Assembly (NCBI RefSeq): GCF_001657475.1
Contig: NZ_LXEY01000021.1
Location: forward strand, 124,001-188,000
DNA length: 64,000 nt
Direction of reading: 5' to 3'
Origin: Enteractinococcus helveticum
Lineage (GTDB): Bacteria; Actinomycetota; Actinomycetes; Actinomycetales; Micrococcaceae
Both the position numbers and the translations under genes were made by a program. This document shows, piece by piece, positions 31,326-35,213 of this stretch (position 1 is the stretch's first letter; the number at the start of each line of letters is the position of its first letter). Under the pieces are notes generated by a model. The model was not told the origin of the DNA. It searched no databases and worked only from the letters and a program-made list of their open reading frames with translations.

Positions 31326-32078
31326 TCAAATGAGTAACGGGATAAATTCGCTTCCGATAACGGAGATTCCCATGACTAGGACGAACCAACCGAATCCGGT
31401 TCGCAATGTGCTGGCTGGTATTTTGGCAGCAAGACGTGCCCCAAGCAGCGAACCGACAACGGCCAATGCCGTAAAAGCCAGAGTCAATGGCCAGTTGATA
31501 CTTACAGCAAAGAGGTGTCCACCAAGTGCAGCGGCGTTTTTCATCACGATGGCTAGCAGCGAGGTACCGATCGCGAGGTGGACTGATAACCCGCCAAACA
31601 TCACAAGCGCTGGCACAATCAGGAAGCCACCGCCGGCTCCGACCAACCCCGTAACAGCACCGACCCCTGCCCCAATCAGCAATGAGGCCCAGAGCTTCGG
31701 CATTGCCTTATCATCAGCTACACGTTGCTTTTTTCTGATCATATTGAACGAGGTGGCAATCATGATGACAGCAAAGAGACTCATCAGCAGGAACCCTGGA
31801 AGGAATTGCGCTGTCAAACCACCAAGAAAGGCTCCCACCATCGACGCCAGACCAAACGGTAGCCCCACGCGGAACGAGACGTGTTTGCCTTTCCAGTGTG
31901 GGATGAGAGCTGCTAAGGACGTCAGCGCGACGATGACCAGCGAGGAGGCGATGGCTTCCTGCGCTTCCATTCCCATGATGTATTTGAGAATGGGCACCGT
32001 CAGGATCGAGCCACCACCCCCTAACAGGCCAAGCGACAGACCTACCAGTATGGCGAGGACATAACCGGCAATGATCAT
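31326..32078 (-). CDS. TauE/SafE-family sulfite/sulfonate exporter
   Basis: A 250-residue membrane protein with about seven to eight hydrophobic segments. It has the duplicated family motif: GLLGGGGSILTVPIL (about 18-32) and GLVGAGGGFLIVPALVMFGG (about 138-157). Three bases separate the preceding MBL-rhodanese gene from it. In staphylococcal cst operons a TauE-like protein exports sulfite made by persulfide oxidation. The same role is likely here. Confidence 0.88.
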   Translation of the reverse strand: MIIAGYVLAILVGLSLGLLGGGGSILTVPILKYIMGMEAQEAIASSLVIVALTSLAALIPHWKGKHVSFRVGLPFGLASMVGAFLGGLTAQFLPGFLLMSLFAVIMIATSFNMIRKKQRVADDKAMPKLWASLLIGAGVGAVTGLVGAGGGFLIVPALVMFGGLSVHLAIGTSLLAIVMKNAAALGGHLFAVSINWPLTLAFTALAVVGSLLGARLAAKIPASTLRTGFGWFVLVMGISVIGSEFIPLLI

Positions 32079-32081
32079 GGT

Positions 32082-33500
32082 TTATGCCCTCGGGCGGGCT
32101 GGCACATTGCCGGGCTTGGCTGCCCAGGAATTGAAGTTTCCGTCGAGTTCGGCCACATCATAACCATATCGCCGCAGCGCCGAGGCTCCCACGGCAGCTC
32201 GTCGCCCGGAAGCGCAATACGTCACGATCGTGGCGTCGTCGGGTAGTTTCGATAAGTCCCAGATGACGCGGCTAACCGGCACTCGTTCGGCCCCCGGGAT
32301 GTACCCTTCGGCAAATTCAGTGTTGTTTCGCACATCTAATAGGAACACGTCATCGTTCTCGGCCAGTTCATCCACACTCATGACCGGTACGCCCTGCCCC
32401 AACAATCCGTCAAGCGAGGTGGTGAATCCAGTGAGCCCATCCACACCAACCCGAATAAAGTGGTCACGATACCGTGCGGCGTCTTCGGCATCCTGTGCCA
32501 GAATCACCAGGTCGCGATGTTCGTCTTCGGGGTTGTACGCCCACGCAATGTGGGTGGCGGCTTTGGAAGCATCAGCAATGGAGAGGGCCCCGGCAACGGC
32601 GGCATCATATCGTTCGGTGTGATGCCGAGTGTCGACGAAGATCTTGTCGTCGTGGTCTAGCAGTGGTTTGAGCTCTGCAGGCGTATATTCGGTCAGTTCT
32701 GGCAGTTCGCCAAGAATTGCCGGACCTTGACGGTTTTGGACTTTCATCCGTGCAAAATACGCGTGGGCATCAGGCTGAGAGTTCAACAGCTCATTGACGA
32801 ACCCGCCAATATCATTGTTTTGTACAAAAGGTGCCCACCATGAGAAATTGCGTTCGTATCCCACGGTTGTGGTGGGTACTGCACCAAGGGCCTTGCCACA
32901 TGCAGAGCCCGCACCGTGTGCTGGCAAGACCTGCACATAATCGGGCAGCGGGAGAAAATGTTCACGTAGCGAAGCAAAGAGCTGCTGGGCGCCAACGAAG
33001 CGCGTATCTACGCCACCGGCTGCTTCATCCAGAAGATCTGGGCGACCCAGGTCGCCCACAAAAACGAAGTCGCCGCTGAGCATGAAGCCTGGTTCTGAGG
33101 CTTGCGCACCGTCAGTGACAAGGAAAGCCATGTGCTCTGGAGTATGGCCAGGAGTATGAACGGCTTCGAAAGTGATGTTTCCTATAGAAATTTTGTGGCC
33201 GTGCTTCATACGAACCGCGTCATCGAAGCCCTCACCGTAGAGCCAATCGGGCCCGCCTTCGTCTGAGACATAGACTTGTGCCCCGGTTGCATTGGCTAGT
33301 TCAAGGGTTCCCGAGAGATAATCCGCATGGATGTGGGTCTCGGTTACACCGATAATCTCCATACCTTCTGCTTCCGCCATATCGAGGTAGACCTGGATAT
33401 CACGTCGCGGATCGACCACAATAGCGGTGTTGTTGGCCTGACAACCAAAGAAATAGCTGCCTTGGGCAAGATCTGGATCGTAGATGTGTTCAAGTAACAT
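32082..33500 (-). CDS. MBL-fold persulfide dioxygenase-like protein with rhodanese domains
   Basis: A CstB/ETHE1-like protein of 472 residues. The N-terminal MBL domain (1-240) has H56, H58 and D60 in THIHAD, then HTPGHTPEH, SGDFVFVGDLGRPD and LPAHG: the mononuclear iron site of persulfide dioxygenases. Two rhodanese-like domains follow. The first (about 265-360) lacks an active Cys. The second has C429 in CASGRRA. It is likely to oxidise low-molecular-weight persulfides to sulfite or thiosulfate. The ribosome site AAGGAG precedes the ATG. The gene is read with the small Cys protein upstream and tauE downstream. Confidence 0.9.
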   Translation of the reverse strand: MLLEHIYDPDLAQGSYFFGCQANNTAIVVDPRRDIQVYLDMAEAEGMEIIGVTETHIHADYLSGTLELANATGAQVYVSDEGGPDWLYGEGFDDAVRMKHGHKISIGNITFEAVHTPGHTPEHMAFLVTDGAQASEPGFMLSGDFVFVGDLGRPDLLDEAAGGVDTRFVGAQQLFASLREHFLPLPDYVQVLPAHGAGSACGKALGAVPTTTVGYERNFSWWAPFVQNNDIGGFVNELLNSQPDAHAYFARMKVQNRQGPAILGELPELTEYTPAELKPLLDHDDKIFVDTRHHTERYDAAVAGALSIADASKAATHIAWAYNPEDEHRDLVILAQDAEDAARYRDHFIRVGVDGLTGFTTSLDGLLGQGVPVMSVDELAENDDVFLLDVRNNTEFAEGYIPGAERVPVSRVIWDLSKLPDDATIVTYCASGRRAAVGASALRRYGYDVAELDGNFNSWAAKPGNVPARPRA

Positions 33501-33532: not shown

Positions 33533-33718
33533 CTAGCGTCCGAATAACCGGGCCAAAATGCCCGGATTAGCTGCCCGAGCGGCAGCAATTTCTTGTTGAG
33601 AGTGCTTGCCGTTGCACCACTGCGCGGCTGGCACGGATGCCTTCACAACGTCAATGTGCTGGCCGCAACCAGCCCACGTCGTTTTTCCGCAAACATCACA
33701 TTTCACTGATCGACACAT
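33533..33718 (-). CDS. small Cys-rich protein of the persulfide locus
   Basis: A 61-residue protein with CxxxxCxxC (C2, C7, C10), a further Cys at 18, His21 and a C-terminal Cys35-x-x-x-H39, suggesting a metal-binding or redox knuckle. Its tail is basic. GAGGAAG lies upstream of the ATG. I recognise it only as a conserved small protein, without a known role. It is the first gene of the persulfide-detoxification transcript, under the CstR-like operators, so it may handle sulfane sulfur or metal. Confidence 0.7.
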   Translation of the reverse strand: MCRSVKCDVCGKTTWAGCGQHIDVVKASVPAAQWCNGKHSQQEIAAARAANPGILARLFGR

Positions 33719-33757
33719 TTATATCTTCCTCATACTGTTACGGGAGTTTACCTGTAA

Positions 33758-33797
33758 ATACCCCCTGGGGTATACGAGACTATACTCCCTGGGGTAT
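33758..33797. promoter_or_regulatory. double CstR/CsoR-type operator
   Basis: Two near-identical palindromes: ATACCCCCTGGGGTAT (33758-33773, arms perfect) and ATACTCCCTGGGGTAT (33782-33797, one arm change). Their centres are 24 bases apart. They fall between the divergent small-protein/persulfide genes and the CstR-like gene, the position for coordinate repression and autoregulation. The form (A/T-flanked run of C and G) matches known operators of the CsoR family. Confidence 0.85.
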
Positions 33798-33830
33798 GCT
33801 GGAGGCAAGTTAACATCGATTTTTGGAGTG

Positions 33831-34112
33831 ATGATGGTTCAGTCAACTGGATTAGAGAACGACCCCCAGGCTAAAAAGAAGGTAGTCAACCGCCTGCGTC
33901 GGGCACACGGTCAACTTGCGGCCGTTATTAGCGCAGTCGAAGATGACGCGCATTGCACAGAAATCATCCAGCAGCTGTCGGCCGTCTCGAAGGCCTTAGA
34001 CCGTGCGGGCTTCTTGGTCATTTCTTCCGCACTTCAGGAATGTTTGACAGTCGGCAAGGTGCAAGAGGAAGATGTAGCACAGTTGGAAAAATTGTTCCTG
34101 TCGTTTGCTTAG
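33831..34112 (+). CDS. cstR: CstR-like persulfide-sensing repressor (CsoR family)
   Basis: A 93-residue helical repressor. The two family cysteines are C42 (HCTEIIQQLSAV) and C71 (ALQECL), 29 residues apart as in CstR. The His that completes the copper site of CsoR, four residues before the second Cys, is Ala (A67). This points to persulfide rather than Cu(I) sensing. The start at 33831 or 33834 follows TTGGAG. The adjacent double operator and persulfide genes support the assignment. Binding of persulfides would crosslink the cysteines and release DNA. Confidence 0.85.
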   Translation: MMVQSTGLENDPQAKKKVVNRLRRAHGQLAAVISAVEDDAHCTEIIQQLSAVSKALDRAGFLVISSALQECLTVGKVQEEDVAQLEKLFLSFA

Positions 34113-34388: not shown

Positions 34389-35213
34389 GGGATGGATGCT
34401 TGTCTCTGATTGCTTGATGCAGGCGTTGAACTTGACCGCATCCGTTGGATTCGACCACGTGAAGCATGGTTCATCGACGGTGCCCAACTGCAACCGCTCA
34501 AGCAGGTCGGTGCTCTCATTGAGGGCGCAGCACACGAAGCTGAAGCGGGTGCTAAGGCGAGTGACGTCACCGATCTTTTCCGCCGCCTAGAAGACGCCGG
34601 GCGGGTCATGCGTTTGGATGAACATCTCGAACCAAAAATGTATCGCGTGACCATGCTCAGTCGTGCTGAGCTCATGGATTTACGACAGATTACCGGGGTG
34701 ATCCGCCGCGGTCACGTGCGGGCGGTCGAGCAGAGGCGCGTCATGCTCGATGACGGCGAGCTGAGCATCTCAATCGATGAGCTCCTCATCGATAGTTCCG
34801 CTTATGGGCTCGCTGCCTCGCCGAAGGTGCAGATTTTCCAAGACAATAAAATTATCCTGCAGCAGATCAGACATGCCTCGCCTACCTTCAATGCAGCGCT
34901 TATTGCCTTTCTGGAAGTACACCGAGACGATAACAATGAACGAAACCGACTAGCGCCACCGAACGTCTCTACCAATAAACCCTCCGATATTCTCATGATG
35001 CTCGTCCGTACGTGGGTCGCCGCCGATCATTGGAGAAGTGAACCTGATGTGAAGAGCTAGATAGCGCACAGCCGACTGAAGCTGACGCGAGGTGTTAGCA
35101 CGAGAATGGACGATCCGCTGGGGCGCGCCGCGGTTGAGCGATACGTCGCGCATCTACCTAAGACAATACAAATATGCGAGCCCTTGCGAAAGTGTAGCAG
35201 TGCTATTCATTAA
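34389..35213 (+). pseudogene. FAD/NAD(P)-dependent oxidoreductase remnant, 5'-truncated with two in-frame stops
   Basis: One frame reads like the C-terminal half of a family of about 500-residue FAD/NAD(P)-binding proteins: GMDACL-stop-LLDAGVELDRIRWIRPREAW, then HASPTFNAALIAFLEVHRDD and NRLAPPN. TGA at 34407-34409 stands where a Trp is expected, and TAG at 35058-35060 again where a Trp would fit before IAHSRLKL. Reading continues in frame to TAA at 35211-35213. Each stop is one G-to-A change from TGG. The N-terminal FAD-binding half is missing; upstream of about 34389 the frame is open but unlike the family. The gene is therefore probably a fairly young, truncated pseudogene. The interval 34113-34388 holds no gene I can support. 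Confidence 0.7.

What the first reader, a model, noticed from the sequence alone, without database searches (positions are those of the whole stretch)
33533..34112. Complete persulfide-responsive switch: CstR-like repressor with A in place of the copper His, two ATACCCCCTGGGGTAT-type operators
The CsoR-family protein has two cysteines 29 residues apart (C42, C71) and Ala67 at the copper-His position. It is divergent from TauE, MBL-rhodanese and a small Cys protein. Two near-perfect 16-base palindromes with centres 24 bases apart lie in the shared promoter. This combination predicts a Cu-independent, persulfide-sensing autoregulated system in an actinobacterium, with the 61-residue Cys protein as an undescribed member.
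Basis: partly seen in the sequence, partly recalled or inferred. Interest (0 to 1): 0.7.

Follow-up and report, generated by a model that had tools for sequence, protein, structure and literature searches.

The report
Persulfide switch with undescribed cysteine protein
This stretch holds a repressor-controlled gene set for removing reactive sulfur of a kind already shown in Streptomyces, plus a small cysteine-histidine protein that no searched family library describes but whose gene carries the same repressor site in many actinobacteria.

Summary
A DUF156 repressor with C-A-C instead of the copper C-H-C motif faces an operon: 61-residue Cys protein, persulfide dioxygenase-rhodanese, TauE. Two 16-bp palindromes lie between. 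The switch is not new: S. coelicolor ScCsoR/ScPDO/TauE with operator ATACCn6GGTAT was shown in 2020 (PMC7533328).

Two things go further. (1) The Cys protein has no Pfam, NCBIfam or PHROG family, yet is a core member of this regulon: in 149 family genomes it occurs in 90, of which 87 hold a window-like repressor (Fisher p 5e-22, relatedness uncorrected). Copies over 5 kb from the repressor mostly keep their own operator (24 of 32 examined); the three genomes lacking such a repressor lack it. (2) One base of spacing separates paralogues: C-H-C repressors sit by ATACC-N7-GGTAT (23 of 41, never N6), non-His ones by N6 (14 of 24 and 37 of 47, never N7). Genome-wide, N6 sites follow the window-like repressor (97 of 101 versus 2 of 48); N7 sites are in 147 of 149. 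Cys genes carry N6 (108 of 178), never N7, so they side with persulfide, not copper. What the Cys protein does is inferred only.

The parts
33831..34112 (+). DUF156 repressor of the CstR type (C-A-C); start may be 33834
33782..33797 (.). operator 2, ATACTCCCTGGGGTAT, inside the -35/-10 spacer of the predicted Cys-operon promoter and overlapping the first 3 bases of its -10
33758..33773 (.). operator 1, ATACCCCCTGGGGTAT, near the expected start of the Cys-operon transcript (start inferred from the predicted -10)
33779..33808 (-). predicted sigma-70-type promoter TTGCCT-18-TATAGT for the Cys-PDO-TauE operon (consensus match only)
33533..33718 (-). 61-aa Cys/His protein, first gene of the operon; C2 C7 C10 W15 GCG H21 C35 invariant in 16 wide members
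32082..33500 (-). persulfide dioxygenase-rhodanese fusion (type III PDO / CstB-like)
31326..32078 (-). TauE/SafE family sulfite exporter, last gene of the operon

Best explanation
A persulfide-responsive, autoregulated divergon. Without reactive sulfur, the C-A-C repressor sits on two N6 operators, one of which lies between the predicted -35 and -10 of the operon promoter, and shuts off both directions. When persulfides or polysulfides rise, the two cysteines are modified, the repressor lets go, and the cell makes a persulfide dioxygenase-rhodanese (persulfide to sulfite), a sulfite exporter, more repressor, and a 61-residue Cys/His protein. Shown by sequence: genes, operators, conservation, regulon membership by operator across genomes. 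Inferred from S. coelicolor: binding and sensing chemistry. Inferred only: that the Cys protein is a small zinc-site domain with an N-terminal Cys2 that carries or buffers sulfane sulfur for the dioxygenase-rhodanese. A one-base difference in operator spacing (N6 against N7) keeps this circuit apart from the copper CsoR circuit in the same cell.
For: Same gene set, same two-Cys repressor and same ATACCn6GGTAT operator as the tested S. coelicolor circuit. None of 47 repressors typed at the named Cys-protein loci has the copper His. Own genome: the two other DUF156 proteins are C-H-C beside a metal P-type ATPase gene (judged from the sequence), and the one on C16 has two N7 sites. N6/N7 counts 0:23 for C-H-C and 51:0 for non-His loci. 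Genome-wide N6 presence follows the window-like repressor, 97 of 101 against 2 of 48; one genome per genus 17 of 18 against 0 of 14. Cys gene with the repressor: 87 of 90 genomes, 66 of 90 within 5 kb. Strict operator within 200 bp upstream of the Cys gene in 56 of 80 named loci, against 0.004 expected from the rest of the same loci. Predicted promoter overlaps operator 2. The PDO matches solved beta-lactamase-rhodanese chains over most of its length, 3tp9 E 3.6e-98 and 3r2u E 8.3e-76.
Against: No binding, expression or chemistry was measured. The Cys protein has no fold neighbour in the PDB at E<=0.001, so its role rests on company and conserved residues. 11 of 29 phylum loci show neither operator nor a query sulfur gene in the +-1.5 kb held. 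Four family genomes have the repressor but no strict N6 site (G019, G063, G071, G105) and two have a site without it (G079, G118). 18 of 41 C-H-C and 10 of 24 non-His loci show no strict site at all, the own genome's second C-H-C repressor among them. NCBIfam gave no CstR model, only sub-cut-off FrmR, RicR and RcnR matches and one chance-level match.
Confidence: 0.82

Rival explanations
1. The Cys protein is a copper-binding, metallothionein-like protein under a copper CsoR/RicR-type repressor, and the circuit answers to copper.
For: Operator half-sites are the same as copper CsoR sites; the S. coelicolor authors note the likeness to RicR and Geobacillus CsoR sites. Small Cys-rich proteins in copper regulons exist (recalled).
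Against: Spacing: Cys genes carry N6 in 108 of 178 loci and N7 in 0 (sets overlap in a few contigs), while C-H-C repressors carry N7 in 23 of 41 and N6 in 0. Three genomes with the Cys gene have only one DUF156 protein, C-H-C with an N7 site, and no strict N6 site anywhere. Recurrent neighbours are sulfur genes.
Confidence: 0.06
2. The Cys protein is regulatory, for example an adaptor or zinc-finger-like cofactor that modulates the repressor or the dioxygenase, not a sulfur carrier.
For: Small beta-hairpin plus helix with CxxC at the turn, as in small zinc domains (likeness judged by eye); no known catalytic motif seen; C-terminal tail near GFxxRLFGR in most close members, suited to docking.
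Against: Often encoded far from its regulator with its own operator, which fits a product needed under persulfide stress as well as it fits a modulator. No direct evidence either way.
Confidence: 0.25
3. The repressor senses another thiol-reactive signal (nitroxyl, hypochlorous acid, electrophiles) rather than persulfide.
For: In S. aureus, nitroxyl can cross-link CstR and lower operator affinity (PMC5480029, passages).
Against: The regulated genes look persulfide-oxidising and sulfite-exporting; the S. coelicolor counterpart responds to polysulfide.
Confidence: 0.08
4. Sporadic neighbourhood: the Cys protein is a housekeeping protein that happens to lie in the operon.
For: 11 of 29 phylum loci show no sulfur gene or operator in the stretch held.
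Against: Co-occurrence 87 of 90, p 5e-22, and 13 of 13 with one genome per genus; unlinked copies mostly keep the operator; different gene orders keep the link.
Confidence: 0.04

Closest known systems
Streptomyces coelicolor ScCsoR (SCO0620) - ScPDO (SCO0618) - TauE (SCO0619) - rhodanese (SCO0621) circuit, PMC7533328
   Same: Two-Cys DUF156 repressor (C37, C66, same 29-residue distance), PDO-rhodanese co-transcribed with TauE, two binding sites of the form ATACCn6GGTAT at the pdo promoter, autoregulation
   Different: The four-gene circuit described there includes no small Cys protein; here it is the first gene of the operon, and no separate rhodanese gene was found among the neighbours searched
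Staphylococcus CstR / CstA / CstB (locus of an S. saprophyticus plasmid)
   Same: Non-His two-Cys DUF156 repressor, PDO-sulfurtransferase, TauE, an N6 site
   Different: C-N-C instead of C-A-C, 38% identity over 66 residues, CstA present, no Cys protein annotated in the 5.2 kb
Copper CsoR of actinobacteria (S. lividans; own-genome copies on contigs C16 and C19)
   Same: DUF156 family, same half-sites ATACC/GGTAT
   Different: C-H-C motif, metal-ATPase neighbours, operator one base longer (N7; consensus ATATACCCCTNAGGGGTATAT in PMC3902906, passage; two N7 sites at C16)
Solved metallo-beta-lactamase-rhodanese chains 3tp9 and 3r2u
   Same: Align with window PDO residues 1-463 and 2-448
   Different: Their genomic neighbourhoods were not looked at

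Membership tests
CstR (persulfide-sensing DUF156 repressor) | DUF156 / Trns_repr_metal domain | tested here: met
   PF02583 E 9.8e-22, 77.6 bits, cut-off 22.8
CstR (persulfide-sensing DUF156 repressor) | Two Cys at CsoR positions, copper His absent | tested here: met
   C42, C71, A67; 7mq3 (listed as csoR; recalled to be a streptococcal CstR) also has Ala there, 2hh7 CsoR has His; non-His in 47 of 47 typed at named loci
CstR (persulfide-sensing DUF156 repressor) | Persulfide dioxygenase, rhodanese or sulfite exporter genes under a shared promoter region | tested here: met
   (by position and operator; expression not measured)
CstR (persulfide-sensing DUF156 repressor) | ATACC-N6-GGTAT operator as in S. 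coelicolor | tested here: met
   operator 1 exactly, operator 2 with one C-to-T change
CstR (persulfide-sensing DUF156 repressor) | Release from DNA by persulfide/polysulfide through both Cys | not testable with these tools
   shown for ScCsoR
CstR (persulfide-sensing DUF156 repressor) | Hit to an NCBIfam CstR naming model | tested here: inconclusive
   no such model among matches at E<=0.1; whether the library holds one was not checked
Copper CsoR | C-H-C copper ligands | tested here: not met
   Ala in place of His
Copper CsoR | ATACC-N7-GGTAT operator and copper export genes | tested here: not met
   N6 sites; PDO and TauE neighbours
Type III persulfide dioxygenase (MBL-rhodanese fusion) | MBL plus C-terminal rhodanese with active-site Cys, near full-length match | tested here: met
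   PF00753, PF00581; 3tp9 residues 1-463, CASGRR loop
Type III persulfide dioxygenase (MBL-rhodanese fusion) | Fe(II)-dependent oxidation of GSSH or an analogue | not testable with these tools
   not measured
Known family for the 61-aa Cys protein | Match in Pfam, NCBIfam, PHROGs or PDB | tested here: not met
   no Pfam or NCBIfam hit at E<=0.1; of 16 wide members no family is matched by more than one, best E 0.19 in Pfam and 0.0093 in PHROGs; PDB best E 0.014, partial

The most novel reading that the evidence does not exclude
Two linked novelties. (a) The Cys protein founds an undescribed family of dedicated persulfide-handling proteins, a zinc-site mini-domain with an N-terminal Cys2 that carries or buffers sulfane sulfur; across Actinomycetota it is often encoded alone with its own operator. 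(b) Cells holding both paralogues insulate copper from persulfide signalling by one base pair: CsoR reads ATACC-N7-GGTAT, CstR reads ATACC-N6-GGTAT, a rule that also held in the seven plasmid loci I looked at, six of them from Bacillota.
Probability: 0.45. Interest if true: 0.78.

Novelty: new variant of a known kind. Interest (0 to 1): 0.6.

Why it matters
Persulfide sensing is an active field, yet a regulon member found in 90 of 149 sampled family genomes has no family name in the libraries searched. If it handles sulfane sulfur, the known pathway (sense, oxidise, export) lacks a part. The spacing rule gives a cheap, genome-wide way to tell persulfide from copper operators, so orphan regulon members can be found by sequence, and it turns the question of how CsoR paralogues avoid cross-talk into a single insertion or deletion experiment.

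Tried and rejected
Pattern TAYNCCCNNNGGGNRTA was wrong for this operator and found nothing; replaced. A copper role for the Cys protein was considered seriously and set aside on the spacing evidence. A string search of the papers for the Cys motif gave one unrelated-looking paper, seen in the listing only. Listings from searches aimed at a published spacing rule or small regulon protein showed none, but three key papers on CstR are not held (two look-ups of one paper and one of another), so either may be in print there.

Limits of the counts. Genomes are related, so Fisher p-values overstate; one genome per genus keeps both patterns. 'Window-like repressor' means P0001 at E<=1e-12; the Cu-His position was typed only in the loci. 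The orphan test used 26 of 38 Cys places that were over 5 kb from a repressor hit or on another contig; six more were already held (two with, four without the site); the six weakest were left out. Of the 32, 24 have the site. Of the eight without, three are the genomes lacking a window-like repressor (22 of 23 versus 0 of 3 in the 26, p 0.0015; 24 of 29 versus 0 of 3 in the 32), one has TauE nearby and an operator 1 kb upstream (L165), three have the PDO nearby and one a rhodanese-like match (L021, L022, L025, L017). Two of the three repressor-less genomes are of one genus. The seven annotated plasmid loci were picked by me from 60 rows listed of 589 records; in at least two of them (L272, L273) the N6 site lies about 2 kb from the repressor. 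The loci sets share at least three contigs. In one search one repressor (L101) was misread by my pattern and one (L047) is cut; redid the typing with a profile. The own assembly is listed with 6.1% contamination.

Full report
What is there. Between 31326 and 34112 the window holds a divergon. On the plus strand lies a 92-93-residue DUF156 repressor (PF02583 E 9.8e-22). On the minus strand lies a run of three genes with short gaps: a 61-residue Cys/His protein, a metallo-beta-lactamase-rhodanese fusion that aligns with solved 3tp9 over residues 1-463, and a TauE exporter. Two 16-base palindromes at 33758 and 33782 lie between the start codons. A consensus scan finds TTGCCT-18-TATAGT on the minus strand at 33808-33779 (two promoter-like sites found in the stretch, 0.5 expected), so operator 2 fills the spacer and touches the -10, and operator 1 lies about where transcription should start. 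In an alignment of eight near relatives, window included, both operators are present in all. The nearest named Cys protein, 95% identical, is in an Enteractinococcus MAG; the next is E. coprophilus at 92%, so the genome is near Enteractinococcus/Yaniella.

The switch is already known in kind. In S. coelicolor the two-Cys repressor ScCsoR represses a PDO-rhodanese gene co-transcribed with tauE; it also binds between its own gene and a rhodanese gene; two ATACCn6GGTAT sites lie in the pdo promoter; polysulfide releases it and both Cys are needed (PMC7533328; results section read in full). The window repressor has the same distance between its Cys and Ala in place of the copper His. In the same genome the two other DUF156 proteins are C-H-C and sit by a metal P-type ATPase gene, named from its sequence by eye. 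So 'persulfide-sensing, copper-independent' is the best reading by homology; I could not test either ligand.

It belongs to this regulon. In 149 genomes of the family it occurs in 90, a window-like repressor (P0001 at E<=1e-12) in 101, both in 87, only the Cys gene in 3, only the repressor in 14, neither in 45; Fisher p 5e-22, and 66 of 90 genomes have the two within 5 kb. With one genome per genus: 13 both, 5 repressor only, 0 Cys only, 14 neither. In 296 genomes of the phylum it occurs in 36. Of the 30 best family loci, window included, 21 have the repressor and 28 at least one of repressor, PDO/rhodanese or TauE in the flanks of up to 1.5 kb. In 5 of 29 phylum loci the operator overlaps the Cys start codon. 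Against: 11 of those 29 show neither operator nor a query sulfur gene in the stretch held.

Orphan copies are the telling case. Of 38 Cys places more than 5 kb from a repressor hit or on another contig, 32 were examined: 24 have the N6 site upstream (22 of 26; 2 of 6). Of the 22, 20 show none of the query sulfur genes in about 6 kb. The three genomes that have the Cys gene but no window-like repressor (G041, G088, G126; two of one genus) lack the site at that gene and lack ATACCCN4GGGTAT anywhere; each holds one DUF156 protein, C-H-C with an N7 site.

Spacing rule. Typing 66 DUF156 loci with a profile: 41 C-H-C, of which 23 have ATACC-N7-GGTAT within 400 bases and none has N6; 24 non-His, of which 14 have N6 and none N7; one other. 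Spacings 3 to 10 were all counted; 18 C-H-C and 10 non-His loci have no strict site. At the named Cys loci, 47 of 47 typed repressors are non-His: 37 with N6, one with N5, none with N7, nine with no site. Upstream of Cys genes, 178 loci (one further locus gave no domain): N6 in 108, N5 in 3, N7 in none; the rest of those loci, 1,238,866 bases, hold 39 N6 and 2 N7 sites. Genome-wide in the family, ATACCCN4GGGTAT occurs in 97 of 101 genomes with the window-like repressor and 2 of 48 without; ATACCCN5GGGTAT in 101 of 101 and 46 of 48. The own genome shows both: two N7 sites before the C16 csoR and two N6-spaced sites here, besides a few weaker matches of either spacing elsewhere. In seven annotated plasmid loci that I picked, six of Bacillota and one of Clavibacter, six non-His repressors have an N6 site in the stretch and no N7, and the one C-H-C repressor has N7 and no N6. 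Published copper sites agree: S. lividans ATATACCCCTNAGGGGTATAT (PMC3902906, passages) and S. aureus copX ATACCctggGTGGGTAT, in a promoter tested by gel shift (PMC5947656, passage), are N7. I saw no paper that states the rule in the listings, but the main S. aureus paper on the two paralogues is not held.

Verdict. Observation confirmed; interpretation supported; the switch is a new member of a known kind, and what lifts it is the undescribed, operator-tagged Cys protein and the one-base operator code that assigns it to the persulfide side. Its function is the open step.

Noticed in passing
own genome C8:44854-44869 (L034:1501-1516): A perfect N6 operator stands about 50 bp before a 313-aa ORF with no Pfam hit at E<=0.001; no sulfur gene recognised by eye in the 3 kb: possible further regulon member.
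   Followed up: partly
own genome C20:161912-161927 (L037:1501-1516): An N6 site between a ferrochelatase-like ORF and an aldehyde-dehydrogenase-like ORF (names judged by eye, not searched).
   Followed up: no
L137, L141, L146, L148, L151: In five distant actinobacterial loci the last two bases of the operator are the first two of the Cys gene's ATG, which suggests leaderless transcripts repressed at the start codon.
   Followed up: no
window 34410-35060 +: A 216-residue ORF behind the repressor has no Pfam or NCBIfam hit at E<=0.1; by eye it may be a remnant.
   Followed up: no
BFVD A0A5K0U7B3, Yasminevirus: A giant-virus predicted structure shares the core at 42% identity over 36 columns, E 0.018, hinting that the family reaches eukaryotes or their viruses.
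   Followed up: no
L080, L109, L059, L104 and other named loci: Thioredoxin (19 loci), single rhodanese (29 loci), a pyridine-nucleotide-disulfide oxidoreductase-rhodanese (5 loci) and another such oxidoreductase (6 loci) recur near the Cys gene.
   Followed up: partly
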